Of a stretch of DNA of 64,000 nt, positions 17,333-64,000 are shown piece after piece. This stretch comes from Streptomyces sp. NBC_01335 (GTDB lineage: Bacteria; Actinomycetota; Actinomycetes; Streptomycetales; Streptomycetaceae): the NCBI RefSeq assembly GCF_035953295.1, contig NZ_CP108370.1:1302001-1366000 (forward strand). Direction: 5' to 3'. Both the position numbers and the translations under genes were made by a program. Each line of letters starts with the position of its first letter. Within the stretch, counting starts at the first letter, position 1. The notes under the pieces were generated by a model. The model was not told the origin of the DNA and did not search any database. It saw only the letters and a program-made list of their open reading frames with translations.

Positions 17333-18673
17333 TCAGGCAGCTACGGGGACGCCGACAGTGGTCGCGCGCTCCAGAAGTGCTCTCGCCTGCCGATTCGAAG
17401 AGTAGGGGGAGAGCACGGACACCATCTCGCGCATGCGATCGTCGCACCTTCCGGACTGCACCATCGGGTAATCGTCCAGAGCCTCGTTCCAGGTGCCCAC
17501 GGCTGCTTCAAGATGCCCGATGGCGAACTGACGCTCAGCGGTCAGGCCGAGATGTCGCACCTTGGCTCGCCTGTAGAGGCTGTGCCGAAGTCTGTTCGAC
17601 TCCTGCATGGACTCAACTGCTCCGGCAGCGTCGCCGAGTTCGTGCCGCACCTGGGCCACGTGATACATCAGCGAGGACGGGTCGTAGGAACCGAAGGCTC
17701 TCGCCTGCGATTCAGCTACGTCCATTGCCTTTTCTGCTTCCTTCATACGGAGAAGAGCACTGTCGCGCTCACCGAGTTGAGCAGCGGCGTGCGCCTGCTG
17801 GCCTGCCAGGAAGGCCCGCATGCGAGGGCCGGCGTGCGGTGAGGCAGCTGCGGCAGCGTCAGCCAGACGAAGCGCATGCCGCCCGTGCCCGAGATCCACA
17901 ACCTGGACGGACATGCCCCGCAGTGTCGTGCAGTAGGTCAGGTGGTCGTCGGCAGCACCGGCCAGTTCCAGAGCCTTGAGGTAGTAGCGCTGGGCCAGTC
18001 CGTGAAGTCCCTCGTCCACCGCCATGTAGCCGGTGAGGTAGCAGAGGTCCGCAGCGGCGGACATCATCTCTTTCCGCACCGCGTCCGGGGCTTGCGCGTG
18101 CAGGTAACCGGCGACGGTGTTCACCAGAAACGCCGCCGCCATCGGCCTGGCATGCCTGCCTCCGAACTGGTCGTCCAACTCGGAGACCCGCTCCGTCATC
18201 TGCGTGACCATCTCGACTTCTCCGCGTCCGATACGGGTCACCTGGCCCGCGGCAAACGCTTCGGCGCGACCCACTACGTCTGGCCAGTCCGGAATGGTGA
18301 GCGCCACGGAGAACAGTGCCGCACCCGGTACGGAACGACGTGAGGGATCCATGTCCTGCCTCCCCAGATCGACGAGTCCTTCCACCGTATCGAGTGGGGT
18401 TCCCTCTCCCTGGAGCCGAGGAAAGCCCGTCTCCTCACGGGTAACCGGTCGGGACAACCGGCGGGAGAAGACTTCGAGGATCAGGCCCCTGGCCTCTTTG
18501 CGCGGCATGGTGCCGTCAAGCCAGTGCTTCACCGCGGATTCGTCGTAGCGGGTAGGCCGCCCGGTCTCCGTACCAGCCCTGTTCACTGCCATGGCGAAGC
18601 TGCTGTATGTCCAGCCGGTCTCTCGCAGAAGGCGAGCCAATCCCTCATTCGGCTTCTTCTGAGACACAGTCAA
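17333..18673 (-). CDS. NsdA-like regulator: XRE-type HTH with TPR region
   Basis: A 446-residue protein with an N-terminal XRE-like DNA-binding region (LARLLRETGWTYSSFAMAVN, then DESAVKHWLDGTMPRKEA, residues 12-62) and a long C-terminal array of TPR-like helices (for example LHGLAQRYYLKALELAGAA). This architecture matches the Streptomyces NsdA-type regulators that influence development and antibiotic production. The start is TTG 18673 or the nearby GTG 18667, which is better spaced from AAGGGCGG. A second member of the family lies at 23733. It diverges from two small ORFs. Target genes are unknown. Confidence 0.82.
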   Translation of the reverse strand: MTVSQKKPNEGLARLLRETGWTYSSFAMAVNRAGTETGRPTRYDESAVKHWLDGTMPRKEARGLILEVFSRRLSRPVTREETGFPRLQGEGTPLDTVEGLVDLGRQDMDPSRRSVPGAALFSVALTIPDWPDVVGRAEAFAAGQVTRIGRGEVEMVTQMTERVSELDDQFGGRHARPMAAAFLVNTVAGYLHAQAPDAVRKEMMSAAADLCYLTGYMAVDEGLHGLAQRYYLKALELAGAADDHLTYCTTLRGMSVQVVDLGHGRHALRLADAAAAASPHAGPRMRAFLAGQQAHAAAQLGERDSALLRMKEAEKAMDVAESQARAFGSYDPSSLMYHVAQVRHELGDAAGAVESMQESNRLRHSLYRRAKVRHLGLTAERQFAIGHLEAAVGTWNEALDDYPMVQSGRCDDRMREMVSVLSPYSSNRQARALLERATTVGVPVAA

Positions 18674-18966
18674 CCGCCCTTGTTTTCAAGGCTTTCAAGT
18701 CCTCGCGTCACGGGTTCCTCAACCTGCTCGTCCGCGAGGATCTGGGCGCCGACCACGACCCGGCCGTACGGGAACTGATCGGCAGGGCGTACGTCCTTCT
18801 GGCGGCGAAGGCCCCCACGCGGGAGACACCGTGCTTCAGCGCCTACGCCCACGTGCGGGAGGCAGCCGACATCGCCCGGCGTCTGCTCAGGGTCTGGGCC
18901 GGAAGGAACCGCGAGGCCGGGCGGCAAGGCAGGGACGCGGTGCGAGTGACCGGGGAACGCCCGTGA
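18607..18966 (+). CDS. hypothetical protein, start uncertain
   Basis: The coding-like part (from about 18700) reads REDLGADHDPAVRELIGRAYVLL and continues through AYAHVREAADIARRLLRVW, a helical soluble protein. The only ATG in frame (18607) lies inside the divergent regulator gene, overlapping it by 66 bases, and has no ribosome binding site. The true start may be non-standard or the gene may be 5'-degraded. The stop overlaps the GTG of the next small ORF (GTGA), which argues that it is translated. It may belong to the small proteins that accompany XRE/TPR regulators in Streptomyces. Function unknown. Confidence 0.45.
   Translation: MSSRSLAEGEPIPHSASSETQSTALVFKAFKSSRHGFLNLLVREDLGADHDPAVRELIGRAYVLLAAKAPTRETPCFSAYAHVREAADIARRLLRVWAGRNREAGRQGRDAVRVTGERP
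18678..18691. promoter_or_regulatory. inverted repeat between regulator and small ORFs
   Basis: CCTTG-TTTT-CAAGG, followed by a second CTTTCAAGT half-site. It lies immediately upstream of the XRE/TPR regulator start and is a candidate autoregulatory operator. Confidence 0.45.
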
Positions 18967-19109
18967 CGACAAGGATCGGGGTGTACCGGGTAGGGCGTGA
19001 AGGCAACCGCGAGGTGATCCGCCCCGTGCGCCCGGTGAAACCCCTCAAGGTGCCGGAGGTCACGTCGGCCTGGCCCCGGTGCCGGTGCCCCCGCCACAGG
19101 GCCATGTGA
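18963..19109 (+). CDS. 48-residue small protein translationally coupled to the preceding ORF
   Basis: GTG 18963 overlaps the preceding stop in a GTGA arrangement. The protein begins with TRIGVYRVGREGNREV, continues with a proline-valine stretch (RPVRPVKPLKVPEV) and ends with a CRCPRH segment that could bind metal. The style resembles the small proteins next to XRE/TPR regulators in other Streptomyces, from memory only. Function unknown. Confidence 0.55.
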   Translation: MTTRIGVYRVGREGNREVIRPVRPVKPLKVPEVTSAWPRCRCPRHRAM

Positions 19110-19237
19110 GGACCCGGCCGATCGAGACCGGTTCGAACGCGGTCCGACAACACCGGAGGACGGCACCATCTCGACCCGGGAGCCCGGAGGTCCTGGGGCC
19201 GCCCATGGAGCGCCGGTCAGGTACCACCGGGCGCCGC

Positions 19238-20218
19238 TCATCCCGACCGCCGACCGCCCAGGGAGTTCAGCAGCGCGGCGCCCCGTTCGGCGTCGTCCAC
19301 GCTCACCGCGAAGTCCTTGCCCCTGGCGCTTATGACGAGGCACTCTCCGCCGCGGAGCATCACCGTGGTGCCGAGCCCGCTCAGTCGGTAGCCCCAGCCG
19401 CCCACCTGGGTCGGCCTGCGGTACTCGGACCGGGCCGACTCGATGTCCTGGAGGGTCCAGCGGCGCGCCGGCCAGCCGAGCGGTCCGAACGACACCTTCA
19501 GCCCCTTCTCGCTGACGGTCGCCTGCACCGAGGCGCAGCCCAGAAACAGAACCGAGGTGAGCGCGGACAGCATGATCAGCGTCCACTGCGGGGCCGTCAC
19601 CCCCACGGCAGCGACCAGGACGGTGGCCAGGGCCACGACTCCGGCGAGCGCCGCGGACACGTGGAGCCACGGGTTGGACGCCCGGGAGAACCACATGAGC
19701 CGTTGCCCGGTGGGCAGATCCATGCGCGGGCCGTCCTCCGTCGCCACCGGGGCGATGACCCTCCGGCTGCTCACCCGCCAGGCGGCCAGCCCGACCACGG
19801 CCGCCACCACGAGAGTTCCGACGGTCCCGACCGTCACCGAGCCGGCCTCATGCCAGTCGGCCCGGTCGAGGTTGGCCCGTACGATCGACGCCTGAACTCC
19901 GGCCAGGAAGACACCCGTCGGGACCAGGGTGGCACCCGCCCACCCTCGCGCCGCACCGCCCCGCCGCGCGTTCGCACGCCACACCGCGAGCCCGATCCCC
20001 ACGACCGCCACCGCCCATATCAGCGCGGGGACGAGTGCGGCGGCCCACAGGGGCATGGCACCGTCGGGCCGCCCTGCCCCGTTCCAGTGCGTCGCCACCC
20101 GTTCCGGGAGTCGCCCGCTCGCCGCCGGCACCATGCCCACCAGCAACGCCAGGACCCCGACAGTCCAGCAGACGGCACCCCATATGGCACCGCCCCTGCT
20201 CTTCGCGCGCTCGCTCAC
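19238..20218 (-). CDS. DUF1648-type integral membrane protein
   Basis: A 326-residue membrane protein with about seven hydrophobic segments. The N-terminal part has the DUF1648 pattern (LPERVATHWNGAGRPDGAMP, about residues 37-56), and the C-terminal third is a PH-like soluble region (SFGPLGWPARRWTLQDIESA). The GTG start overlaps the stop of the GntR gene (GTGA at 20215-20218), so the two are translationally coupled. This GntR(YtrA)-DUF1648 pair is common in Gram-positive bacteria and often concerns envelope stress, but the role here is unknown. Confidence 0.85.
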   Translation of the reverse strand: MSERAKSRGGAIWGAVCWTVGVLALLVGMVPAASGRLPERVATHWNGAGRPDGAMPLWAAALVPALIWAVAVVGIGLAVWRANARRGGAARGWAGATLVPTGVFLAGVQASIVRANLDRADWHEAGSVTVGTVGTLVVAAVVGLAAWRVSSRRVIAPVATEDGPRMDLPTGQRLMWFSRASNPWLHVSAALAGVVALATVLVAAVGVTAPQWTLIMLSALTSVLFLGCASVQATVSEKGLKVSFGPLGWPARRWTLQDIESARSEYRRPTQVGGWGYRLSGLGTTVMLRGGECLVISARGKDFAVSVDDAERGAALLNSLGGRRSG

Positions 20219-54792: not shown

Positions 54793-54914
54793 GAGACGGG
54801 CGGCCCACAGCAAGCCGTGGTTCCCTGGCGGGGGTGCGCGACCTTCTCGCCGGAGGTTCCGTGCATCCATTGCTTACGGGACCACCCGTGCCCGGATCAC
54901 CCCGCCGGTGCTAG

Positions 54915-54930
54915 CTTAGGCAGACCTAAG
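54915..54930. promoter_or_regulatory. iron box upstream of the siderophore-interacting protein
   Basis: CTTAGG-CAGA-CCTAAG, close to the DmdR/IdeR consensus (TTAGG...CCTAA). It lies 67 bases before the start of the next gene, so expression should rise when iron is scarce. Confidence 0.82.
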
Positions 54931-54996
54931 TTTCGCGGCCCCGGGCGCTGGTCCCCGGCTCCCGGGTCCCGCACATTCCGGCACAGGGAGATCCAC

Positions 54997-55845
54997 GTGG
55001 CACGTCCGACGCGGCAACCGCCCAAGGGCAAGGGTGCGCAGGTCGTGCGCACCGAACAGATCACCCCCCACATGGTGCGGGTGGTCCTGGGGGGCGAGGG
55101 CCTCGCCTCCTTCGGGACCGAGGGTTTCGCCGACCACTACGTGAAGCTCTGCTTCGCACCCGAGGGCGCCGACTACGCGCACCCCTTCGACATGGCGGCG
55201 ATCCGCGAGTCGTACCCGCGCGAGCTGTGGCCGACCACGCGTACGTACACCGTGCGCTCCTGGGACCCGGCCGCCCGCGAGCTCGCGATCGACTTCGTCG
55301 TGCACGGCGACGAGGGCCTGGCCGGTCCGTGGGCCGCGCAGGCCTCCCCCGGCGACCCGATGACGCTCCTCGGCCCGGGCGGCGGCTACTCCCCGCAGGA
55401 GTCGGCCGACTGGCACCTGCTGGTGGGCGACGAGAGCGCGCTGCCCGCCATCGCGGTGGCGCTGGAGCAGATGCCCGCCGACGCCCGGGGGCACGTGTTC
55501 ATCGAGGTGCCCGACGCCGCCGAGGAGCAGAAGGTGACCGTCCCCGCCGGGGTGTCGGTCACCTGGCTGCACCGGGGCGAGCGCCCGGTCGGCGAGCTCG
55601 CCACCGCCGCCGTGCTGGGGCTGGACTTCCCGGAGGGCGAGGTGCAGGCGTTCGTCCACGGCGAGGCCGGCTTCGTCAAGGAGATCCGGCGGTACCTGCG
55701 GGTCGAACGCGAGATCCCGCTGGGGCAACTGTCGATCTCGGGCTACTGGCGCCTCGGCCAGAACGACGACGCCTGGCGTGCCGTCAAGCGCGAGTGGAAC
55801 GAGCAGGTCGAGCGCGAGCAGGAGACCGGTCCCGGTACCGGCTGA
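54997..55845 (+). CDS. siderophore-interacting protein (FAD-dependent ferric-siderophore reductase)
   Basis: A 282-residue SIP/ViuB-family flavoprotein that releases iron from siderophores in the cytoplasm. The FAD-binding RxYTxR motif is RTYTVRSWD (about residue 83), the NAD(P)H-binding part includes LVGDESALPAIAVALEQMP (about 147-165), and the family ending SISGYWRLGQNDDAW is present. GTG 54997 follows AGGGAG. The iron box upstream supports this role. Confidence 0.95.
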   Translation: MARPTRQPPKGKGAQVVRTEQITPHMVRVVLGGEGLASFGTEGFADHYVKLCFAPEGADYAHPFDMAAIRESYPRELWPTTRTYTVRSWDPAARELAIDFVVHGDEGLAGPWAAQASPGDPMTLLGPGGGYSPQESADWHLLVGDESALPAIAVALEQMPADARGHVFIEVPDAAEEQKVTVPAGVSVTWLHRGERPVGELATAAVLGLDFPEGEVQAFVHGEAGFVKEIRRYLRVEREIPLGQLSISGYWRLGQNDDAWRAVKREWNEQVEREQETGPGTG

Positions 55846-56033: not shown

Positions 56034-56061
56034 CCAATCCGAACGGCCCGCGGCTCCGAAT
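56034..56061 (+). promoter_or_regulatory. SigK-type promoter of sigK-rskA
   Basis: CCAATCC (56034-56040), 15 bases, CCGAAT (56056-56061). It resembles the mycobacterial SigK consensus (CCATCC, CCGAAT) and is identical in boxes and spacing to the promoter at 63287-63314, suggesting autoregulation. The sigK start is 38 bases downstream. Confidence 0.78.
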
Positions 56062-56098
56062 CAAGGGGAGTCCATGAACCTCCTGGGAGGAAGCCGCG

Positions 56099-56683
56099 TT
56101 GAAAGAAGCCGTGTACATCGGCCCCGTGCCTTCGGCCGGACCCGATCTGCAGGACCTCCTGGTCCAGGTTGCCCGGGGGGACCAGGACGCCTTCGCCCAG
56201 GTCTACGACGCCGTCTGCGGACCGGTCCTGGGTCTGATCCGCACCGTCCTGCGCGACCCCGCCCAGTCCGAGGAGGTCGCCCAGGAGGTGCTGGTGGAGG
56301 TGTGGCGGACCGCGCCGCGCTACCAGCCGTCCCGTGGCAGCGCCATGAACTGGGTGCTGACGCTCGCCCATCACCGGGCCGTGGACCGGGTCCGCTCGGC
56401 GGAAGCGTCGGCGGCGCGGGAACACCGGGCCGCACTGCTGGACCGCACACCGGCGTACGACGAGGTGACCGAGCAGGTCGAGACCCGGCTGGAGCGCGAA
56501 CAGGTGCGCCGCTGTCTGCGGACCCTGTCCGACCTGCAACGCGAGTCGGTGACCCTGGCCTACTACCGGGGCCTGACCTACCGCGAGGTGGCCGAACTCC
56601 TCGCCGTACCGCTGGGAACCATCAAAACGCGCCTGCGCGACGGTCTGATCCGGATGCGCGACTGCCTGGGGGTGAGCGCATGA
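56099..56683 (+). CDS. sigK: ECF RNA polymerase sigma factor SigK-like
   Basis: A 194-residue group 4 sigma factor with region 2 (DAFAQVYDAVCGPVLGLIRT to SAMNWVLTLAHHRAVDRVRS, about residues 29-102) and region 4 (LSDLQRESVTLAYYRGLTYRE to VPLGTIKTRLRDGLIRMRDC, about 142-188). TTG 56099 is favoured because GGGAGG is eight bases upstream; GTG 56111 is the alternative. It overlaps rskA (ATGA). Homology to M. tuberculosis SigK is judged from gene order and motifs, not a search. Confidence 0.93.
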   Translation: MKEAVYIGPVPSAGPDLQDLLVQVARGDQDAFAQVYDAVCGPVLGLIRTVLRDPAQSEEVAQEVLVEVWRTAPRYQPSRGSAMNWVLTLAHHRAVDRVRSAEASAAREHRAALLDRTPAYDEVTEQVETRLEREQVRRCLRTLSDLQRESVTLAYYRGLTYREVAELLAVPLGTIKTRLRDGLIRMRDCLGVSA

Positions 56684-57438
56684 GCACCACGGCGGAACTC
56701 CACACGTTGACCGGCGCCTACGCGCTGCACGCCCTCCCCGAGGACGAACGCCACGCCTTCGAGCGGCACTTGGCCGAATGCGTCGCCTGCACCCAGGAGG
56801 TGGCGGAGCTCTCGGCCACCGCGTCCCGGCTGGCCCTCGCGGTCTCCGTCGCTCCCCCGCGCGGAATGCGCGACGAGGTGCTGTTCCGGATCACGACGGT
56901 ACGTCAGGAGGCGCCGGGGCACGGCGTTCCCGGTGGTCCGGCCGCCGCTCCCGGGCGGCCCGGCCGGTGGACCCGGTACGCCCTGGCGGCCTGCCTGGCC
57001 GCCGCCGCCTCCCTCGGCGGAGTCGCGGTGTGGCAGAACCAGGTGGCACGGGACGCCCAGCAGGAGGCGGACAGTGCCCACCAGCGGAACGAACTGCTGG
57101 CGCGCGTGCTCTCCGCACCCGACGCGAAGACCGTCTCGACGGAGTTCGCCGCGCGGGCACGCGGCACGGTCGTGGTGTCGTCGAGCGAGAACCGGGCCGT
57201 GTTCCTCTCCTCCGGGCTGGAGCGGCCGCCGGCCGGCAAGGTCTACCAGCTGTGGTTCGCGGACGGCGGGACGATGCGTTCGGCCGGGCTGATGGACCCG
57301 GACGCGACGGGCGACGCGGTGCTCCTGGCCGGCCCGGTCGACGACGCTTCGGGCATGGGCGTCACCGTCGAGCCGGCAGGCGGCTCGGCCACGCCCACCT
57401 CGGCGCCTCTCGCGCTGATGAACTTCCCGACGGCCTGA
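56680..57438 (+). CDS. rskA: anti-sigma-K factor RskA-like membrane protein
   Basis: A 252-residue regulator with an N-terminal zinc-associated anti-sigma domain (HALPEDERHAFERHLAECVAC in two parts; the HxxxCxxC motif near residue 30-35), one membrane helix (YALAACLAAAASLGGVAV, about 99-116) and an extracytoplasmic RskA domain (KVYQLWFADGGTMRSAG). It should hold SigK inactive until cleaved on an external signal. Coupled to sigK by ATGA. Two terminators follow. Confidence 0.93.
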   Translation: MSTTAELHTLTGAYALHALPEDERHAFERHLAECVACTQEVAELSATASRLALAVSVAPPRGMRDEVLFRITTVRQEAPGHGVPGGPAAAPGRPGRWTRYALAACLAAAASLGGVAVWQNQVARDAQQEADSAHQRNELLARVLSAPDAKTVSTEFAARARGTVVVSSSENRAVFLSSGLERPPAGKVYQLWFADGGTMRSAGLMDPDATGDAVLLAGPVDDASGMGVTVEPAGGSATPTSAPLALMNFPTA

Positions 57439-57462
57439 TCGGGGGCGTCGTCGGGAGGGTGG

Positions 57463-57513
57463 CCCGGGACCTCCTCGGAGGTCCCGGGCTGTGCCCCGTG
57501 CGTGCGGGGCACA
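57463..57513. terminator. double hairpin between rskA and the convergent lipid operon
   Basis: The first hairpin has 12-base arms CCCGGGACCTCC/GGAGGTCCCGGG (57463-57488, 2-base loop). The second has TGTGCCCCG/CGGGGCACA (57490-57513). They probably insulate both operons. Confidence 0.82.
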
Positions 57514-57557
57514 GCACGCACGACGAAAGGCCCTGCGCGGTGGGAGAGTGCCGCGGT

Positions 57558-58361
57558 TCAGTTCCGCCGGGGCGGCAGCGGGACGAAGCCGCTGGTACGC
57601 GCCCGGTAGGCGGCCCAGCCCGGCCTGTCCGCCATATGACGTTCCAGCAGGGCCTTGCCGCTTCCGCCGATGAGCAGGTAACTCATCGACGCGGGGGCGA
57701 CGGCGGTCGCCGCCGCTGCGGCCGGACTGTCCACGACGAACAGGAACAGACCCCACCAGACGCAGAAGTCCCCGAAGTAGTTGGGGTGCCGGGTCCAGGA
57801 CCACAGGCCTCTGTCCATGATCAGGCCGCGGTGCGCGGGATCGGCCTTGAACCGCGCCAGCTGACGGTCCCCCACCGCCTCGAAGACCAGCCCCACCGAC
57901 CACAGCGCGCACCCGGCCCAGACCCACCCGGTGGGCGGGCCCTTCACGTACTGCGCGGCCTGCACGGGGGCGGAGACCAGCCAGACCAGGAAGCCCTGGA
58001 GCAGGTACACCTTGCGCAGCGCGTAGAGGCCGGGGTGGCCGGGGGCCCTGTTCAGCAGGGCCTCGTAGCGCGGGTCCTCGCCGTGGCCGCGTCCGCGGCG
58101 CGCGATGTGCAGGGCGAGCCGGAAGCCCCAGACGACCGTGAGGGCGGTCACCAGGAGCCGTCGCACCCCGTCGCCGTCGCCCGCCGACATGCGGTACGAG
58201 ACGAGGGCGACGGCGGCGAACCCGATCCCCCAGGCGACGTCCACCACCCGGTGCACCCCTTTGCGCAGGGCCACCGTGAAGGTGACGAGCATGACGGCGA
58301 GGGCGGCGCCCGCCGCGGGGGCCAGCCCCTGGGCGAACGCCGCCCAGCCGAAGCCGGTCAC
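57558..58361 (-). CDS. DUF1295 (steroid 5-alpha-reductase-like) membrane protein
   Basis: A 267-residue integral membrane protein of the DUF1295 family, related to isoprenylcysteine methyltransferases and steroid reductases. It has about seven hydrophobic segments and the C-terminal motif WSWTRHPNYFGDFCVWWG (about residue 190), which binds cofactor. GTG 58361 overlaps the upstream methyltransferase stop (GTGA). It corresponds to Rv0446c of the M. tuberculosis sigK locus. It probably reduces or otherwise modifies a lipid; the reaction is unknown. Confidence 0.9.
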   Translation of the reverse strand: MTGFGWAAFAQGLAPAAGAALAVMLVTFTVALRKGVHRVVDVAWGIGFAAVALVSYRMSAGDGDGVRRLLVTALTVVWGFRLALHIARRGRGHGEDPRYEALLNRAPGHPGLYALRKVYLLQGFLVWLVSAPVQAAQYVKGPPTGWVWAGCALWSVGLVFEAVGDRQLARFKADPAHRGLIMDRGLWSWTRHPNYFGDFCVWWGLFLFVVDSPAAAAATAVAPASMSYLLIGGSGKALLERHMADRPGWAAYRARTSGFVPLPPRRN

Positions 58362-59791
58362 CGGTCCACGCCCAGTTGCTCGTACCAGCCGTGCCGGGTG
58401 GCGGGCATCGCCGCCGCTCCCGAGGCGTCGGGGCGCACGCAGAGGATCTGGTCGACGCCCATCCGCCGTTCTTCGAAGGCGAGGGCGCCACCCACCAGGT
58501 AGAGCCGCCAGACCCGGGCGGTCTCCTCGCCCACGAGAGCCACGAATTCCGGCCAGCGGGCCTCCAGGGTGCGCCGCCACGCCTCCACCGTCAGGACGTA
58601 GTGCTCGCGCAGCGATTCGACGTCGCGCACTTCGAGTCCGGCGCCCTCCAGCAGCCCGACCGTCTCGCCGAGCGGCCGCATGTGCATGTCGGGGGCGATG
58701 TAGGACTCGATGAAGACGCCACCCCCGGGCGCGGTGGTGCCGCGGGACATCTGCTGGACGAGGGCCCGGCCCCCGGGGCGCAGCACGTCGTGCAGCAGCG
58801 CGGTGAACGCGGGGTATTGGGCGTCGCCGACGTGCTCGCCCATCTCGACGGTGGAGACCGCGTCGTAGCCGGCCCGGAAGCCCGGCAGGTCCCGTACGTC
58901 CCGGTAGTCGGCGTGGTGCACCTCGACACGGTCCGCCAGACCGAGTTCACCGACCCTCCGGGTCACGTGGGCGGCCTGTTCCGCGGCGAGGGTGACGGCG
59001 GTGACCCGGACGCCGTGATGGCGGGCCGCGTACAGGGTGAGTGAGCCCCAGCCGCAGCCGATGTCCAGGAGCCGCCCGTCGGGGCCCAGTCCGAGTTTCC
59101 GGCAGATCAGTTCGAGCTTGTCGCGCTGGGCGTCGGCCGGCCCGTAACCGGGCCGCCCCTCGCCCGTCCAGTAGCCGCAGGAGTACGCCATCGTCCCGTC
59201 CAGCAGGAGGGTGTAGAAGGCGTTGGACAGGTCGTAGTGGTGGCTGATGGCGGCGCGGTCCCGTGCCTGGCTGTGGAGGGCGCCCCGAAGCCCCGCCCGC
59301 GAGGCGGGCACCGGCGGGCGGGGCCCGACCGCGCCGAGCCGTACGGCGGTGACCGCCGCCCTGATCCGGTCGCCGAGTCCTCCGGCGGGTGGGCGCAGTC
59401 CCCTCTCCCGGGCGGCCCCGCGCATGGCACGCAGTCCTTCGGCGAGGTCGTCCGCGAAGTCGATGTCGCCGGTGATGTAGGCCTCGGCGAGGCCGAGTTC
59501 GCCGGGCTGCCAGAGCAGCCGGCGCAGGGCGTGGCGGCGGCGCACGTGCACAGTCGGCGCGTCGGCCGGGCCGGTCTCGCTGCCGTCCCACATGCGGACG
59601 CGTACCGGCAGCGCACCGCCGAGGAGCCGCTCGACCAGCGGTCCGACCCGCTGGGCGGCGCCGTTCGGTGCGGTGTCCGGCGCGGGGGCGTCCGGGGTGC
59701 TCCGCGGGCGCGGCACGGCAGCGGGGTCCGCGGTGTGCCGGGCGGCGGTCGCTCCGGAGCCGGGTGCGGCGGGGTCCTGCGGGGGGTTCAC
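58358..59791 (-). CDS. CFA-synthase-type SAM-dependent fatty-acid methyltransferase 2
   Basis: A 477-residue cyclopropane-fatty-acid-synthase family methyltransferase. The N-terminus is a 60-residue Pro/Ala-rich extension and a small accessory domain. The catalytic domain opens with AISHHYDLSNAFYTLLLDG and binds SAM through LLDIGCGWGSLTLYAARHHG (about residue 255). GTG 59791 is chosen for GGAGGAG six bases upstream; GTG 59854, overlapping the previous stop, is the alternative. It is a second, divergent methyltransferase; the M. tuberculosis locus has one. Confidence 0.92.
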   Translation of the reverse strand: MNPPQDPAAPGSGATAARHTADPAAVPRPRSTPDAPAPDTAPNGAAQRVGPLVERLLGGALPVRVRMWDGSETGPADAPTVHVRRRHALRRLLWQPGELGLAEAYITGDIDFADDLAEGLRAMRGAARERGLRPPAGGLGDRIRAAVTAVRLGAVGPRPPVPASRAGLRGALHSQARDRAAISHHYDLSNAFYTLLLDGTMAYSCGYWTGEGRPGYGPADAQRDKLELICRKLGLGPDGRLLDIGCGWGSLTLYAARHHGVRVTAVTLAAEQAAHVTRRVGELGLADRVEVHHADYRDVRDLPGFRAGYDAVSTVEMGEHVGDAQYPAFTALLHDVLRPGGRALVQQMSRGTTAPGGGVFIESYIAPDMHMRPLGETVGLLEGAGLEVRDVESLREHYVLTVEAWRRTLEARWPEFVALVGEETARVWRLYLVGGALAFEERRMGVDQILCVRPDASGAAAMPATRHGWYEQLGVDR

Positions 59792-59850
59792 GGGGGTCTC
59801 CTCCGGTGGGGGAAGGGTCGGGCGGCGGGCGGTCGGGTCGGCGGCGGGGG

Positions 59851-61113
59851 TCACGGGGCCTCCGGGCGCACGAGCAGGACCTGTTCGACGTTGAGGTAGC
59901 CCGAGCGGAAGCCGGCTTCGGAGTAGGCGAGGTAGAAGGTCCACATCCGCCGGAAGGTGGCGTCGAACCCGAGGGCGTCGACCTCCTCGGCGCGTTCGTG
60001 GAAACGTTCCCTCCACAGGCGCAGGGTCTCGGCGTAGTGGGTGCCGAACCGTGCGCGCCGGTCGGTCCGCAGGCCGGCGCGTGCCGCGGTCTCCTCCAGG
60101 GCCCGGCTGGAGGGGATCAGCCCGCCGGGGAAGATGTACTTCTGGATCCAGGTGTGGGTGGCGCTCGCCGCCCGCATCCGGTCGTCCGGCATGGTGATGG
60201 CCTGGAGCGCGATCCGGCCGCCGGGAGCGAGCCTCGCCTCCAGGGTGCGGAAGTAGACGGGCCAGTACGCCTCTCCGACGGCCTCGATCATCTCGACGCT
60301 GACGATCGCGTCGTACTCCCCGGTGATCTGCCGGTAGTCGCGGAGGCGGACCTCGATCCGGTCCTCCAGTCCGGCGTCCCGGATGCGGCGGCGCGCGAGG
60401 TCCCGCTGTTCGGCGGAGAGCGTGACCGTGGTGACCTCGGCGCCCCTGGCCGCGGCACGCAGCGCCAGTTCGCCCCAGCCGGTGCCGATCTCCAGCAGCC
60501 GGGTGCCGGGGCCCACGGCGGTCAGATCGAGCAGCCGGTCGATCTTGCGGTGCTGCGCGGCCGGAAGCAGGGACTGTTCGGCCGGAAACCCCCGGAAGAG
60601 GGCGGCGGAGTAGGTCATGGTCTCGTCGAGGAAGAGCGCGAAGAGGTCGTTCGAGAGGTCGTAGTGGTGGCTGATGTTGTCCCGGGCGCCGTCCGGTGTG
60701 TTGGCCTGCGCGGCGGGCTGCCGCGGCGCCCAGAGCGGGCGCAGCCGCTGGAGCGGGGCGGGGACGAGTTCGGCGACGTGTCCGGCGAGTACGGAGAGCA
60801 CGGCGACGGGATCGGGGGCGTCCCACTCCGCCGCCATGTAGGACTCGCCGAAGCCGATGAGGCCGTTGACCCCGATCCGGCGGAAGAACGCCCCGGGGCG
60901 GTGGATCTCCAGCAGCGGGCCGCCCAGACCGAGGCTTTCGCCGCCCGCGAGCCGGGCGCGCAGCGGGAGGCGCCCCAGAGCGTGGCGGACGACGCGTTCG
61001 GCGACGGCGGTCCTCGGGCGGGAGGCGCGTCGGGGCCGGACGATGTCGGGCCAGCGCTCCGGGTCGGGGACGGGGAGCACGGACGGGGAGCAGGGGGAGG
61101 TGGACACCTTCAC
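59851..61113 (-). CDS. CFA-synthase-type SAM-dependent fatty-acid methyltransferase 1 (UfaA1-like)
   Basis: A 420-residue methyltransferase of the cyclopropane/methyl-branched fatty acid synthase family, which alkylates double bonds of membrane phospholipid acyl chains. ISHHYDLSNDLFALFLDETM (about residue 140) opens the catalytic domain; the SAM motif is LLEIGTGWGELALRAAARG (about 188) and the VSVEMIEAVGEAYWPVYF loop follows. GTG 61113 overlaps the DUF1365 stop. The position matches M. tuberculosis ufaA1 (Rv0447c), reported to make 10-methyl-branched fatty acids. The product here is not shown. Confidence 0.93.
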   Translation of the reverse strand: MKVSTSPCSPSVLPVPDPERWPDIVRPRRASRPRTAVAERVVRHALGRLPLRARLAGGESLGLGGPLLEIHRPGAFFRRIGVNGLIGFGESYMAAEWDAPDPVAVLSVLAGHVAELVPAPLQRLRPLWAPRQPAAQANTPDGARDNISHHYDLSNDLFALFLDETMTYSAALFRGFPAEQSLLPAAQHRKIDRLLDLTAVGPGTRLLEIGTGWGELALRAAARGAEVTTVTLSAEQRDLARRRIRDAGLEDRIEVRLRDYRQITGEYDAIVSVEMIEAVGEAYWPVYFRTLEARLAPGGRIALQAITMPDDRMRAASATHTWIQKYIFPGGLIPSSRALEETAARAGLRTDRRARFGTHYAETLRLWRERFHERAEEVDALGFDATFRRMWTFYLAYSEAGFRSGYLNVEQVLLVRPEAP

Positions 61114-61850
61114 CGCATGCCTTTCTGAGTACGGGAACGGGGGCGCGGGACCACCGGCAGTCCGCGCAGGAGGAGGCGGATGCCGTGGAACCGGATCGCG
61201 AGGGAGACCGCGGCGGTGGACCAGGGGTGGCGTGCGGCCAGCCGCAGCAGCGCGGCCGGCCCTGCGGGGCGCCCGGTGCCCCGCACGGTCGCCGTGAACG
61301 GGCGCCGGCCCGCGCGTTCCAGGTGGATGGTCAGCGCGAGCCGGGCCCCTGGTTCCGGCAGCCGCATCCGGTAGGAGCCGTCGACGGGGAAGAACGGCGA
61401 GACGTAGAAGTCCTTGTCGGCCGAGGCCACGCCGTCCGCGCCGGGCCGCAGGAGGTAGGCGTGGCGTTCCCCGTACGTGTTGTGCACCTCGGCGACGACG
61501 CAGAGCGGTGAGCCGTCCGGCCGGTGGCACCAGTACACGGTGAGGGGGTTGAAGACATGGCCGAGAACCCGGGCCTGGGTGAGCATCCGCACCGTGCCGT
61601 CGCCCAGTTCGACACCGTGGGCCGCCAGGAAGCGGGTGAGGCCGGCGCGGATGCCGGGTGCCGTGCCGCCGAAGTGGTCCCGGGCGTCGAACCGGGCGAG
61701 CGGGGCCAGCGGGCGGGGCAGGCGCGGGGGGTGGTCGGGATCGATGAACCAGAGGTAGGTGCGGTGGCGGAAGGCGTAGCGGCGCGGCCGCGTCCGTACA
61801 TGGGTGATGGTGCACGGGTAGAGCGCCGCGGCGCCGGGAGCGCCCGTCAC
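61110..61850 (-). CDS. DUF1365 family protein
   Basis: A 246-residue protein of the DUF1365 family, often placed between an FAD oxidoreductase and a CFA synthase. The family blocks are present: YPCTITHVRTRPRRYAFRHR (about residues 11-30), LGHVFNPLTVYWCHRPDG, EVHNTYGERHAYLL and KDFYVSPFFPVDGSYRM. GTG 61850 overlaps the previous stop (GTGA), and its stop overlaps methyltransferase 1. It corresponds to Rv0448c. Its biochemical role is unknown; it probably helps in fatty-acid modification. Confidence 0.92.
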   Translation of the reverse strand: MTGAPGAAALYPCTITHVRTRPRRYAFRHRTYLWFIDPDHPPRLPRPLAPLARFDARDHFGGTAPGIRAGLTRFLAAHGVELGDGTVRMLTQARVLGHVFNPLTVYWCHRPDGSPLCVVAEVHNTYGERHAYLLRPGADGVASADKDFYVSPFFPVDGSYRMRLPEPGARLALTIHLERAGRRPFTATVRGTGRPAGPAALLRLAARHPWSTAAVSLAIRFHGIRLLLRGLPVVPRPRSRTQKGMR

Positions 61851-63127
61851 CAGGTCACCCCCAGCGCGTGGGCCGCCTCGACACCGGAGCGGCAGCCGTC
61901 CTCGTGGAAACCCCAGCCGTGGTACGCCCCGGCGAAAGCGGTCACCGGCCCGGAGAGCGCGGGCAGCAGTGCCTGCGCGGCGATCGACTCCGGTGTGAAG
62001 ACCGGGTGTTCGTAGACCATCCGGGCGCGGACACTCCGGGGGTCCACCCGTCCCCCGTCGTTCAGTGTGACGACGAAGGTCTCGGGGGCGTCGAGCCGTT
62101 GCAGCCGTGTCATGTCGTAGCTGACCGTGACCTGGCGGGCGTCGGCAGCGCACGAGGGCATCAGGTAGTTCCAGGAGGCGCGGGCCCTCGGGGCGTCCGG
62201 CAGGAGCGTGGTGTCGGTGTGCAGCAGCGTGGTGTTGCGTGAGTACCGGAACGCGCCGAGGACGCTGGTCTCCGCGTCGGTGGGGTCGGCGAGCAGCCGC
62301 AGGGCCTGGTCGGGATGGGTGGCGACGACCACGCGGTCGTACCCCTGCGTGATCCCGTCCTCGGTGACCAGTTCGACGCCGTCGTGGTGCCGGCGCAGGG
62401 CTCGGACCGGAGTGGCCGTGCGCACCGCGGAGAGCCGCTTCGTCAGCAGGTCGACGTAGGAGCGGGAACCGCCGGTGACGGTGCGCCAGACCGGCGAGCC
62501 GCCGACGGAGAGCATGCCGTGGTGGGCCAGGAAGCGGAACAGGTGGCGGGCCGGGTGGCGGAGCGCGGTGACCGGGTCGCAGGACCAGACGGCGGAGACC
62601 ACCGGGGTGAGGAAGTGGGCGCGGAAATAGGGGGAGAAGCGGTAGCGCTCGGCGAACTCCCCCAGTGTGAGCAGGGCTTCTCCGCTCGCGCTCTCCGGCT
62701 CCGCGAGCACCACACGGGCGGCCCGGTGGAACCGGGGCACCTCGGCGAGCATCCGCAGATAGGCACCGCGCAGTGCCGCGCGCGGTTGGGCGAGGAGTCC
62801 GGACACCCCGCGGGCGCCCGCGTATTCGAGTCCGCACCCCTCGCACCGGACGGACATCGACATCTCCGACTCCTGGGTGCGGACGCCGAGTTCGTCGAAG
62901 AGCCGCAACAGATGCGGATACGTCCGGCGGTTGTGGACGATGAAGCCCGAGTCGACGCGGTGCACCCGGCCGTCCGAGGAGGTCAGGTCGTGGGTGTGCG
63001 CGTGCCCCCCGGGGCGGTCGTCCGCCTCGTAGAGCGTGACGTCGTCGGTCTTCGTCAACACGTGGGCGGCGGTCAGTCCCGCCACCCCGCTTCCGACCAC
63101 GGCCGTGCGCCGCCGTACCGCTGCCAT
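61847..63127 (-). CDS. FAD-dependent oxidoreductase (amine-oxidase-like, Rv0449c type)
   Basis: A 426-residue flavoprotein with the N-terminal dinucleotide fold TAVVGSGVAGLTAAHVL (about residues 8-24), YEADDRPGGHAHTH and a C-terminal FAGAYHGWGFHEDGC segment. This family always accompanies DUF1365 and a CFA synthase. It may desaturate or oxidise the modified acyl chain. ATG 63127 follows GGAAGGTG. It is the first gene of the five-gene coupled operon, and a SigK-like promoter lies about 100 bases upstream. Confidence 0.93.
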   Translation of the reverse strand: MAAVRRRTAVVGSGVAGLTAAHVLTKTDDVTLYEADDRPGGHAHTHDLTSSDGRVHRVDSGFIVHNRRTYPHLLRLFDELGVRTQESEMSMSVRCEGCGLEYAGARGVSGLLAQPRAALRGAYLRMLAEVPRFHRAARVVLAEPESASGEALLTLGEFAERYRFSPYFRAHFLTPVVSAVWSCDPVTALRHPARHLFRFLAHHGMLSVGGSPVWRTVTGGSRSYVDLLTKRLSAVRTATPVRALRRHHDGVELVTEDGITQGYDRVVVATHPDQALRLLADPTDAETSVLGAFRYSRNTTLLHTDTTLLPDAPRARASWNYLMPSCAADARQVTVSYDMTRLQRLDAPETFVVTLNDGGRVDPRSVRARMVYEHPVFTPESIAAQALLPALSGPVTAFAGAYHGWGFHEDGCRSGVEAAHALGVTW

Positions 63128-63224
63128 CCCGTGCACCTTCCGTGAGTTGGTCCCTCGCCGCCACGGCCGCCCTGAGCGGGGCCAAGGCCGCCGGGCGCCT
63201 GCCGGACAGGCGCCCCACGGAGTT

Positions 63225-63252
63225 GTTCGTCGCCGGCCGTCCCGCGGATTGG
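63225..63252 (-). promoter_or_regulatory. degenerate SigK-type promoter of the lipid-modification operon
   Basis: On the minus strand CCAATCC (63252-63246), 15 bases, ACGAAC (63230-63225). The -35 box and spacing equal those of the two other promoters, and the CGAA core of the -10 is kept. It should drive the FAD oxidoreductase operon. Confidence 0.58.
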
Positions 63253-63286
63253 CCGGAACCGAGGTGTGATCCATTCGGGTGAACGA

Positions 63287-63314
63287 CCAATCCGCCGGCC
63301 GCCCGGCGCCGAAT
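63287..63314 (+). promoter_or_regulatory. SigK-type promoter of the molybdopterin oxidoreductase
   Basis: CCAATCC (63287-63293), 15 bases, CCGAAT (63309-63314). The GTG start at 63322 is seven bases after the -10 box, so the mRNA should be leaderless. Confidence 0.76.
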
Positions 63315-63321
63315 CCCCGGT

Positions 63322-64000
63322 GTGACAGCAGATCGGAACGATGCGCGAACGCAGGGACCTTCGGAGTCCCGGCGCTCCCGCTGGGTGCGCGCCGCACTGG
63401 CCGCCCTCAGCGGGCTGATCGCCGGGTTCTGTGCCCTGTGCGTCGCCGAGTTGGCCGCGGCGGCCGTACGCCCGGAGGCGGGGCCGGTCACGGCGGTGGG
63501 CGGCGCGGTCATCGACCGCACTCCCCCGGCCGTGAAGGACTTCGCCGTACGGAACTTCGGCACGGACGACAAGCTGGTGCTGCAGCTGGGCATCCTCGTG
63601 CTGCTGGCGCTCTTCGCCATGGCGGTGGGAGTCCTGGCACTGCGGCACCGGCGGGTCGGCGCCTCGGCCGTTCTGGTCTTCGGTCTGGTCGGGGCGGTGT
63701 CGGCGGTGGGGCGGCCCGAGGGCAGCCCCTTTGACGCGCTGCCTTCGGTGGTCGGTGCGGTCGTCGCGGCGGGAGTGCTGTATCTCCTGATCGGCCGGCT
63801 GGCCCCGGCCAGGACTCCGGTCCGGTCCCCGTCACCCGCGGCTGGGGAGACGGAGACCGGGCCGGTACCCGCCGCCGGGGCCTCCTTCGACCGGCGCGGG
63901 TTCGTGATCGCCGCCACCGCCGCCGCGGCGGCCTCGGCCGGGGCGGGGTACGTGGGGCGCCGCCTCACCGCCTCCGTCGAGGCCGGGGCGTCCGCCTCGC
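63322..64000 (+). CDS. membrane molybdopterin-dependent oxidoreductase (sulfite-oxidase-like), 5' part
   Basis: About 226 residues are visible and the gene runs out of the window. The N-terminal membrane part has about four hydrophobic segments (for example WVRAALAALSGLIAGFCALC and LGILVLLALFAMAVGVLAL), with AVGGAVIDRTPPAVKDFAVR in the first loop. It ends in a RRGFVIAATAAAAA segment that leads into the molybdopterin domain, which lies outside the window. This layout is known from Streptomyces sulfite-oxidase-like enzymes; the assignment is from memory. GTG 63322 is fixed by the promoter spacing. Confidence 0.78.
   Translation, partial: MTADRNDARTQGPSESRRSRWVRAALAALSGLIAGFCALCVAELAAAAVRPEAGPVTAVGGAVIDRTPPAVKDFAVRNFGTDDKLVLQLGILVLLALFAMAVGVLALRHRRVGASAVLVFGLVGAVSAVGRPEGSPFDALPSVVGAVVAAGVLYLLIGRLAPARTPVRSPSPAAGETETGPVPAAGASFDRRGFVIAATAAAAASAGAGYVGRRLTASVEAGASAS

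What the first reader, a model, noticed from the sequence alone, without database searches (positions are those of the whole stretch)
56034..64000. A compact SigK regulon: sigK-rskA, a lipid-modification operon and a molybdoenzyme
Seen: three promoter-like sites with the same -35 box (CCAATCC) and the same 15-base spacer, at 56034-56061 (+), 63287-63314 (+) and 63225-63252 (-). Two have the identical -10 CCGAAT, the third ACGAAC. They sit before sigK, before the molybdopterin oxidoreductase and before the FAD/DUF1365/methyltransferase/DUF1295 operon. Known: M. tuberculosis SigK recognises CCATCC...CCGAAT, and its locus Rv0449c-Rv0444c has the same gene set. Inference: one anti-sigma-controlled response changes membrane fatty acids and switches on a redox enzyme.
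Basis: partly seen in the sequence, partly recalled or inferred. Interest (0 to 1): 0.75.

Follow-up and report, generated by a model that had tools for sequence, protein, structure and literature searches.

The report
SigK stress regulon in a Streptomyces
A soil bacterium carries one switch (SigK-RskA) whose matching promoters control a membrane-lipid operon and a surface-protein operon, and the same kinds of target genes are switched on by singlet oxygen in an unrelated photosynthetic bacterium, which suggests what this poorly understood switch may sense.

Summary
Observation confirmed. The three CCAATCC-N15-[C/A]CGAA[T/C] sites are exactly as stated and are the only exact N15 matches in the 8.36 Mb genome. 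In 80 related named loci plus this one, 113 of 120 exact matches lie before sigK, the FAD-oxidoreductase operon or the molybdoenzyme; the reversed control finds 0. The molybdoenzyme start codon follows the -10 by 7 nt in 31 of 32 measurable loci, so a leaderless mRNA is predicted. The SigK-regulon reading is well supported by sequence, not by experiment. Two things were missed. The gene after the molybdoenzyme, just outside the window, is an MPT70-like fasciclin lipoprotein, the classic SigK target. And FAD oxidase, DUF1365 and CMAS match UfaD-UfaO-UfaM, the furan-fatty-acid pathway; in Rhodobacter sphaeroides that pathway and a fasciclin gene belong to the RpoE-ChrR singlet-oxygen regulon. 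Best reading: an actinobacterial membrane photo-oxidation-type response making furan-type fatty acids. Regulon about 0.9, lipid product about 0.5, singlet-oxygen-type signal about 0.35. Caveats: no expression or lipid data; a second SigK-RskA pair exists in this genome.

The parts
56034..56061 (+). SigK-type promoter P1 (CCAATCC-N15-CCGAAT) of sigK-rskA
   Evidence: motif upstream of sigK in 44 of 54 loci, 53 of 55 with the extended pattern
56099..56683 (+). sigK (ECF sigma factor), TTG start with GGGAGG upstream
   Evidence: NF007228 SigK 292.6 bits, cut-off 226; best PDB hit M. tuberculosis SigK 4nqw, E 2.2e-46, both cysteines aligned
56680..57438 (+). rskA (anti-sigma factor), 4-nt overlap with sigK
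   Evidence: PF10099 RskA_C 104.6 bits, PF22618 RskA_N, zf-HC2
57439..57557 (.). two perfect hairpins (12 and 10 bp) between the convergent operons, likely bidirectional terminator
   Evidence: RNA fold -82.3 kcal/mol, z -5.2 against shuffles
57558..58361 (-). DUF1295 protein (weak steroid 5-alpha-reductase match), last gene of lipid operon
   Evidence: PF06966 219.8 bits, PF02544 26.2 bits
58358..59791 (-). CMAS2, second CMAS-type SAM methyltransferase (absent from many relatives); start uncertain, GTG 59791 or 59854
   Evidence: PF02353 231 bits; 34% to CMAS1; only a cross-hit to CMAS1 in many loci; starts
59851..61113 (-). CMAS1, UfaM-like SAM methyltransferase
   Evidence: PF02353 286 bits; 45% over 346 aa to the CMAS beside rpoE-chrR in Azospirillum lipoferum
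61110..61850 (-). DUF1365 = UfaO-like protein (furan-forming oxygenase homologue); only DUF1365 match in the genome
   Evidence: PF07103 228.9 bits; single match in own genome; 42% over 163 aa to Azospirillum DUF1365
61847..63127 (-). UfaD-like FAD amine-oxidase family protein; ATG 63127 preferred (GGAAGG 8 nt upstream), GTG 63136 possible
   Evidence: PF01593; 44% over 422 aa to Azospirillum homologue; start check
63225..63252 (-). SigK-type promoter P2 (CCAATCC-N15-ACGAAC) of the lipid operon
   Evidence: motif upstream of ufaD in 50 of 81 loci, 65 of 81 extended
63287..63314 (+). SigK-type promoter P3 (CCAATCC-N15-CCGAAT), divergent from P2
   Evidence: motif before the molybdoenzyme in 30 of 35, 32 of 35 extended
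63322..64000 (+). Sulfite-oxidase-family molybdoenzyme with hydrophobic N-terminal segments (by eye), GTG start 7 nt after the -10 (predicted leaderless); 550 aa, continues to L006:16974 (window-equivalent 64974)
   Evidence: PF00174 140.6 bits; spacing 7 nt in 31 of 32 measured loci. Next gene L006:17095-17742 (window-equivalent 65095-65742, outside) = fasciclin lipoprotein, PF02469, MPT70 1nyo E 5.7e-35

Best explanation
This is the SigK-RskA regulon of a Streptomyces. Shown by sequence: one ECF sigma factor with its RskA-type anti-sigma factor; three matching promoters, one for sigK-rskA itself (autoregulation) and a divergent pair. One of the pair stands before ufaD-ufaO-CMAS1-CMAS2-DUF1295. 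The other stands before a molybdoenzyme with a predicted leaderless start, followed by an MPT70-like fasciclin lipoprotein gene. Inferred: an oxidative membrane signal leads to proteolysis of RskA or loosening of the SigK-RskA complex, SigK is freed, and the cell methylates unsaturated acyl chains (CMAS1, UfaM-like), desaturates them (UfaD) and oxygenates them to a furan-type fatty acid (UfaO). Furan lipids are destroyed by singlet oxygen and, in Rhodobacter sphaeroides, their genes are needed for full release of the sigma factor. The molybdoenzyme and fasciclin lipoprotein would act outside the membrane, the former perhaps handling oxidised sulfur compounds. It works like the RpoE-ChrR singlet-oxygen response but uses a different sigma/anti-sigma family.
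For: Motif uniqueness in the genome. 113 of 120 exact motif matches in 1.55 Mb of 81 loci lie at the three promoters, reversed control 0. In upstream regions the motif (NC[AG]ATCC-N13..17-NCGA[AC]N) is in 44/54 (sigK), 50/81 (ufaD), 30/35 (molybdoenzyme), against 0/56 (rskA), 0/74 (DUF1295), 1/77 (CMAS1), 4/81 (ufaO). In 8 loci the -10 has changed to CGGA at both sigK and ufaD. SigK and RskA family matches; both redox cysteines in 63 of 63 aligned SigK sequences. MPT70-like fasciclin gene behind the molybdoenzyme; DUF1365 and fasciclin each give a single match in the genome, both here. Gene order ufaD-ufaO-CMAS equals R. palustris RPA2571-2570-2569, shown to make 9M5-FuFA (PMC7380195, abstract and two results sections read). 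In A. lipoferum and Aminobacter plasmids an FAD gene and a DUF1365 gene lie directly divergent from a sigma factor with ChrR; in A. thermophilum one gene lies between; protein identities 42-45%. The R. sphaeroides RpoE regulon under singlet-oxygen stress lists cfaS (UfaM), RSP_1091/1090 (UfaD/UfaO) and a fasciclin protein, RSP_1409 (PMC7074977 Table 1, passage). R. capsulatus uses a singlet-oxygen-induced pair closer to SigK-RskA than to RpoE-ChrR (same paper). M. kansasii light induces mpk83 and mpk70, which have putative SigK sites (PMC9861118, passages).
Against: No transcript, protein or lipid was measured. The characterised UfaD/UfaO/UfaM sequences themselves were not held; only homologues beside rpoE-chrR were compared. 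UfaA1 of M. tuberculosis was reported to make 10-methyl stearate in vitro (as told in PMC5660069, which doubts it). R. capsulatus has the SigK-like pair but no homologue of UfaD, UfaO or the fasciclin RSP_1409 (PMC7074977 Table 1), so the pairing is not obligatory. In the M. kansasii passages seen, only mpk83 and mpk70 of the SigK-type genes are listed as light-induced, weakly (6- and 3-fold), not the lipid operon. Oxidising conditions stabilise the M. tuberculosis SigK-RskA complex in vitro (PMC7509140 introduction), which is opposite to a simple oxidation switch. Streptomyces membranes are mostly saturated branched chains (recalled), so substrate may be scarce. 16 of 81 ufaD regions lack even the extended motif. 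Genus-wide, most exact motifs (81 of 110) are not near DUF1365. A second SigK-RskA pair (67% identical SigK) exists in this genome and could share these promoters. In the class sample 23 of 42 DUF1365 genomes show no RskA within 10 kb on the same contig.
Confidence: 0.6

Rival explanations
1. SigK regulon as described, but the lipid operon makes cyclopropane or 10-methyl (tuberculostearate-like) fatty acids, not furans; the response is a general membrane-fluidity or envelope response.
For: Two CMAS-family methyltransferases; UfaA1 of the mycobacterial operon was reported to give 10-methyl stearate in vitro (told in PMC5660069, passages).
Against: TBSA synthesis was assigned to another gene, cfa, in M. 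smegmatis (PMC10127668, passages), and in M. chlorophenolicum to BfaB with BfaA, an FAD-linked oxidoreductase encoded beside it (PMC5660069). DUF1365 travels with ufaD across the phylum: ufaD is hit beside ufaO in 31 of 34 fetched loci, and UfaD-UfaO are the steps that lead to the furan (PMC7380195).
Confidence: 0.3
2. The promoters are read by the second SigK-RskA pair of this genome (about 7.74 Mb) as well as, or instead of, the local SigK.
For: SigK2 is 67% identical to SigK. In other Streptomyces, SigK relatives at 63-67% identity lie divergent from DUF4331 genes with the identical CCAATCC-N15-CCGAAT promoter.
Against: No such motif was found upstream of SigK2 here; the three promoters surround the local sigK and are conserved with it in relatives.
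Confidence: 0.2
3. Chance resemblance; the three sites are not promoters.
For: Up to 2 mismatches the genome holds 55 sites against 18 in the reversed control, so weak matches mean little.
Against: Exact N15 form unique to the locus; conserved position, spacer and -10 spacing to the GTG in relatives; joint -10 change at two promoters.
Confidence: 0.02

Closest known systems
Mycobacterial SigK-RskA regulon (Rv0449c-Rv0444c and mpt83-dipZ-mpt70)
   Same: SigK with both redox cysteines, RskA, a lipid operon at the sigK locus, fasciclin lipoprotein target, autoregulation (PMC7509140 abstract, introduction and passages; PMC10540498 passages; gene-by-gene identities of Rv0449c-Rv0446c recalled)
   Different: sigK-rskA converges on the lipid operon instead of lying downstream in it; -35 CCAATCC here, CCCATCC in three unnamed same-class loci with sigK next to the lipid genes (L122, L123, L127), CCATCC in M. 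tuberculosis (recalled); extra CMAS2; fasciclin gene follows a molybdoenzyme; dipZ not looked for
RpoE-ChrR (ECF11) singlet-oxygen regulon of Rhodobacter sphaeroides
   Same: Targets UfaM, UfaD, UfaO and a fasciclin protein; sigma factor next to ufaD-ufaO (PMC7074977 passages)
   Different: Anti-sigma is RskA-type, not ChrR; other promoter sequence; its photolyase, RpoHII and cytochrome targets were not looked for here
Furan fatty acid pathway UfaM-UfaD-UfaO(-FufM) of R. sphaeroides and R. palustris
   Same: Same three families, same order as RPA2571-2570-2569
   Different: DUF1295 and CMAS2 added; product not known for this operon
SorA/SoxC sulfite dehydrogenases and MsrP (YedY)
   Same: Oxidored_molyb domain (PF00174)
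   Different: Far under the curated cut-offs of SorA (118 of 600 bits) and MsrP (37 of 207 bits), with N-terminal hydrophobic segments (sequence by eye)

Membership tests
SigK-RskA regulon | SigK orthologue | tested here: met
   NF007228 292.6 bits, cut-off 226; 4nqw best PDB hit
SigK-RskA regulon | Adjacent RskA-type anti-sigma factor | tested here: met
   PF10099 and PF22618 over cut-off, overlapping sigK by 4 nt; transmembrane segment not computed
SigK-RskA regulon | Redox cysteine pair of SigK | tested here: met
   C139 and C189 in 63 of 63 aligned SigK sequences, aligned to M. tuberculosis SigK cysteines
SigK-RskA regulon | SigK-type promoter at target operons | tested here: met
SigK-RskA regulon | MPT70/MPT83-type fasciclin target | tested here: met
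   L006:17095-17742, PF02469 and 1nyo, second gene behind P3; co-transcription not tested
SigK-RskA regulon | DipZ target | not tested
   no search made
SigK-RskA regulon | SigK-dependent transcription | not testable with these tools
   needs RNA from mutants
Furan fatty acid pathway | UfaD, UfaO and UfaM homologues together | tested here: met
   families by Pfam, homology to stand-ins beside rpoE-chrR; order as in PMC7380195
Furan fatty acid pathway | Orthology to the characterised R. sphaeroides / R. palustris proteins | not tested
   those sequences were not held; Azospirillum and Aminobacter homologues were used as stand-ins
Furan fatty acid pathway | Furan fatty acid product | not testable with these tools
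   needs lipid analysis
ECF11 RpoE-ChrR | ChrR-type anti-sigma factor with cupin domain | tested here: not met
   only RskA_C, RskA_N and zf-HC2 matched at E 0.001
SorA sulfite dehydrogenase | NCBIfam equivalog cut-off | tested here: not met
   118 of 600 bits
MsrP | NCBIfam equivalog cut-off | tested here: not met
   37.3 of 207 bits

The most novel reading that the evidence does not exclude
SigK-RskA is the actinobacterial counterpart of the RpoE-ChrR singlet-oxygen response. Two different anti-sigma families have been placed over the same effector set (furan-fatty-acid enzymes plus a fasciclin protein). Furan lipids made by the operon both scavenge singlet oxygen and, through their oxidation products, trigger RskA proteolysis. 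This would name the missing inducer and the missing lipid product of the SigK regulon.
Probability: 0.35. Interest if true: 0.75.

Novelty: new variant of a known kind. Interest (0 to 1): 0.55.

Why it matters
The stimuli that activate the SigK system 'remain obscure' (words of PMC9861118, passage seen), and most proteins of its lipid operon are still listed as of unknown function (PMC10540498, passage). The regulon parallel found here predicts both the signal (singlet oxygen or lipid photo-oxidation) and the product (a furan fatty acid), and it can be tested in harmless Streptomyces with simple gene removals and GC-MS. It also provides a natural set of promoters with joint -10 changes for studying ECF sigma specificity.

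Tried and rejected
Covariation of SigK residues with the CGGA -10 form: the eight sequences share R76 and E/D78 in the stretch around residues 75-84, but L080 has the same combination with CGAA, so no residue could be assigned. The eight may stem from one ancestor, and at ufaD the base after CGGA varies (T, A or G; with N16 some read CGGAAT). The -35 change CCAATCC to CCCATCC is not joint: L051, L084, L087 and L098 are mixed.

The MRSLERH... protein behind the same motif in other genomes matched no Pfam family (the L168 copy was tried) and gave no match in this genome, so it does not explain the sites here. S. coelicolor 'SigK' (SCO6520) in PMC9205884 is a SigB-type factor, not this protein (passages). 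Veyrier 2008, the main prior paper on SigK regulon evolution, is not held, so how far it covered Streptomyces is not known to me; [quoted passage not shown] Literature searches that bear on the furan link; none of the listed papers, as far as titles, abstract starts and passages seen, ties SigK to furan fatty acids. Papers outside the held library were not searched.
Full report
WHAT WAS CHECKED. The window is 1302001-1366000 of contig C1 of an 8.36 Mb, 4-contig genome. The closest DUF1365 protein listed is 96% identical and from Streptomyces sp. NPDC002308, so this is a Streptomyces. The three sites are present exactly as written. CCAATCC-N14..16-CGAAY occurs three times in the window (shuffle mean 0.03, 0 of 100 shuffles with 3 or more). 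It occurs five times in the genome, of which two have N14; the reversed pattern occurs 0 times. With N15 only these three remain. Allowing 2 mismatches gives 55 sites against 18 reversed, so I used only exact or defined variants.

ANATOMY. sigK (56099, TTG) and rskA overlap by 4 nt. The lipid operon reads towards them: ufaD 61847-63127, ufaO 61110-61850, CMAS1 59851-61113, CMAS2 58358-59791, DUF1295 57558-58361, with 4-nt overlaps at three of the four junctions as the starts were chosen. Between the convergent ends lie two perfect hairpins (fold z -5.2). P2 and P3 form a divergent pair with 34 bases between their -35 boxes. Behind P3 the molybdoenzyme (550 aa, PF00174) begins with GTG 7 nt after the -10, so at the expected start site there is no room for a ribosome-binding site. 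That protein matches MPT70 (1nyo, E 5.7e-35, residues 62-214) and is the only fasciclin match in the genome. The DUF1365 gene is likewise the only match.

FAMILIES. SigK: NF007228 292.6 bits against a cut-off of 226; best PDB hit M. tuberculosis SigK (4nqw) with both cysteines aligned. The pair is present in 63 of 63 SigK sequences that I aligned (at least 45% identity). RskA: PF10099 and PF22618. The molybdoenzyme belongs to the sulfite-oxidase superfamily but is far below the curated cut-offs of SorA, SoxC, SorT and MsrP, so its substrate is open.

PROMOTER CONSERVATION. A scan of genome contigs with the DUF1365 protein gave 80 named loci (the best 80 of 114 confirmed), from Streptomyces and neighbouring genera as titled, so they are related and not independent. 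Together with the window's own locus, in the 420 nt before each gene, a motif NC[AG]ATCC-N13..17-NCGA[AC]N is found before sigK in 44 of 54, ufaD in 50 of 81 and the molybdoenzyme in 30 of 35 usable regions; before rskA 0 of 56, DUF1295 0 of 74, CMAS1 1 of 77, ufaO 4 of 81 and fasciclin 8 of 43 (regions with the gene start missing or too close to an end were left out). The spacer is 15 in 44 of 44 (sigK), 50 of 52 (ufaD) and 29 of 30 (molybdoenzyme) such sites. Over all 1,553,115 bases of these 81 loci the exact form (CCAATCC-N15-NCGAAY) occurs 120 times, 113 of them in the promoter windows of the three genes, with 0 for the reversed pattern. With CC[AC]ATCC and CG[AG]A allowed it is 165, of which 151 fall in the windows: sigK 53 of 55, ufaD 65 of 81, molybdoenzyme 32 of 35. 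Of the seven exact matches outside the windows, those in L043, L044, L046 and L089 lie upstream of the fasciclin gene, and those in L045, L050 and L053 lie at the divergent position beside ufaD. Of 9 loci with fasciclin but no molybdoenzyme hit, 3 show the motif within 400 nt before fasciclin. In 31 of 32 molybdoenzyme loci where it could be measured the GTG starts exactly 7 nt after the -10 (the other is ATG at 8; three more loci lack the motif), so a leaderless transcript is predicted across the group. Eight loci (L060, L063, L068, L072, L085, L106, and unnamed L116 and L117) have CGGA instead of CGAA at both sigK and ufaD, and L085 also at the molybdoenzyme. A joint change at separate promoters is what one sigma factor reading all of them predicts, though it may be a single event in one clade. 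The -35 variant CCCATCC is not joint (mixed in L051, L084, L087, L098).

GENUS-WIDE. In 61 Streptomyces genomes the exact N15 form occurs 110 times against 3 for the reversed pattern (count). 21 of the 61 have DUF1365, and 12 of these 21 have at least one exact motif within 15 kb (29 motifs); 28 further motifs lie elsewhere in those genomes and 53 in the 40 genomes without DUF1365. So the motif is used well beyond this locus in the genus. In 20 regions that I picked from these (not a random sample), downstream features include DUF4331 genes divergent from SigK relatives at 63-67% identity (L158 by Pfam; L163, L166, L169 by likeness to it), sigK itself (L174-L176), fasciclin genes on the motif's strand (L167, L176), a molybdoenzyme-fasciclin pair elsewhere (L160), an unclassified MRSLERH protein (L157, L159, L164, L165, L168), and several sites without a clear gene. 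In this genome none of these extra exact sites exists.

PHYLUM AND CLASS. DUF1365 is found in 35 of 296 genomes sampled from the phylum. In 34 loci fetched from these, ufaD is hit beside ufaO in 31 (not in L123, L127 and L144, the last cut by a contig end), usually followed by a CMAS, so the enzymes form an old module. In a class sample of 148, DUF1365 occurs in 42 and RskA_C in 108; 41 of 42 DUF1365 genomes have an RskA (67 of 106 others; Fisher p 3.5e-6, not corrected for kinship or genome size), and 19 of 42 have the two within 10 kb on one contig. So the module is often, not always, linked to SigK-RskA.

WHAT THE LIPID OPERON MAKES. In R. sphaeroides and R. palustris UfaM (a SAM methylase), UfaD (RSP1091) and UfaO (RSP1090, DUF1365) convert an 18:1 chain on phospholipid to a methyl furan fatty acid; RSP1087-1089 are not needed (PMC7380195, abstract, two results sections and passages). 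The order RPA2571-2570-2569 is the order here. As stand-ins for the characterised proteins I used three plasmid loci. In A. lipoferum and Aminobacter an FAD oxidoreductase and a DUF1365 gene lie directly divergent from a sigma factor with a ChrR-family anti-sigma factor; in A. thermophilum one gene lies between. A CMAS gene is next in A. lipoferum, a short methyltransferase in A. thermophilum, none in Aminobacter. Identities of A. lipoferum proteins to this window: UfaD 44% over 422 aa, CMAS1 45% over 346, UfaO 42% over 163 aa; CMAS2 is more distant, 34% over 269. 23 UfaO columns are invariant over 14 sequences including these. The reductant of UfaO is unknown (PMC7380195, passage); the predicted model is a beta-barrel with weak resemblance to calycins.

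THE PARALLEL. The singlet-oxygen RpoE regulon of R. sphaeroides lists rpoE-chrR, cfaS (RSP_2144, UfaM), RSP_1091/1090 (UfaD/UfaO) and RSP_1409, a beta-Ig-H3/fasciclin protein, log2 change 2.8 and 4.5 (PMC7074977 Table 1, passage). That is the same target set as here: lipid enzymes plus a fasciclin protein. The same paper reports that R. capsulatus, whose singlet-oxygen-induced pair resembles M. tuberculosis SigK-RskA (34% and 25%) more than RpoE-ChrR, lacks homologues of UfaD, UfaO and RSP_1409: for the signal, against a fixed link to these targets. In M. kansasii, light raises mpk83 and mpk70, which have putative SigK sites (PMC9861118, passages). The R. sphaeroides furan-lipid genes are themselves needed for full sigma activation by singlet oxygen (PMC6852236 and PMC7074977, passages). 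From this I infer that SigK senses, directly or through lipid oxidation, a photo-oxidative or related signal. This inference is not shown, and it sits uneasily with the finding that oxidising conditions stabilise the M. tuberculosis SigK-RskA complex in vitro (PMC7509140 introduction).

VERDICT. Observation confirmed. Regulon reading supported by comparative sequence (about 0.9). Furan-type lipid about 0.5. Singlet-oxygen-type signal about 0.35. That SigK sites are conserved between Actinobacteria is already in print (PMC7509140, citing Veyrier 2008). New in what I could see: the fasciclin gene behind the molybdoenzyme, the conserved leaderless start, the joint -10 change, the match of the lipid operon to the furan pathway in a SigK setting, and the parallel of the two regulons. 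Veyrier 2008 is not held and Dufour 2008 was not looked up, so their coverage is unknown to me.

Noticed in passing
L155 (G000:C1 about 7.742-7.744 Mb): A second SigK-RskA pair in the same genome (67% identical SigK), next to genes that look by eye like diaminopropionate/siderophore-type biosynthesis; no CCNATCC-type promoter found upstream.
   Followed up: partly
L060, L063, L064, L068, L072, L085, L106, L116, L117: A Streptomyces group in which the -10 has become CGGA: at both sigK and ufaD in the eight that carry sigK, and at ufaD in L064, which has no sigK hit.
   Followed up: partly
   Followed up: partly
L158, L163, L166, L169: DUF4331-type genes behind the identical promoter, called start 5-17 nt after the -10, divergent from SigK relatives of 63-67% identity.
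   Followed up: partly
L157, L159, L164, L165, L168: A conserved MRSLERHRDV... protein that looks by eye like a zinc-finger anti-sigma factor (no Pfam match for the L168 copy) behind the same motif; these five genomes have no DUF1365 match and it gave no match in this genome.
   Followed up: partly
L094, L097, L102, L105, L108, L114: ECF sigma factors only 28-35% like SigK lie on the same strand upstream of ufaD where no close SigK hit is seen, directly upstream in L097, L102, L105 and L108; possible sigma replacement.
   Followed up: no
L154 (Rhodococcus erythropolis 31-kb plasmid): The lipid operon on a small plasmid without an annotated sigma factor within the 16.7 kb seen (gene table may be incomplete).
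   Followed up: no
61110-61850: AlphaFold2 model of the DUF1365/UfaO protein is a fairly confident beta-barrel plus a long C-terminal helix, with only weak structural matches to nitrobindin, spirocyclase and fatty-acid-binding folds.
   Followed up: partly
54817-55845: Siderophore-interacting FAD protein (PF08021, PF04954) directly upstream of sigK, same strand.
   Followed up: no
L006:17991-18536 and 18571-19533: SPW-repeat protein and ADP-ribosylglycohydrolase genes follow the fasciclin gene.
   Followed up: no
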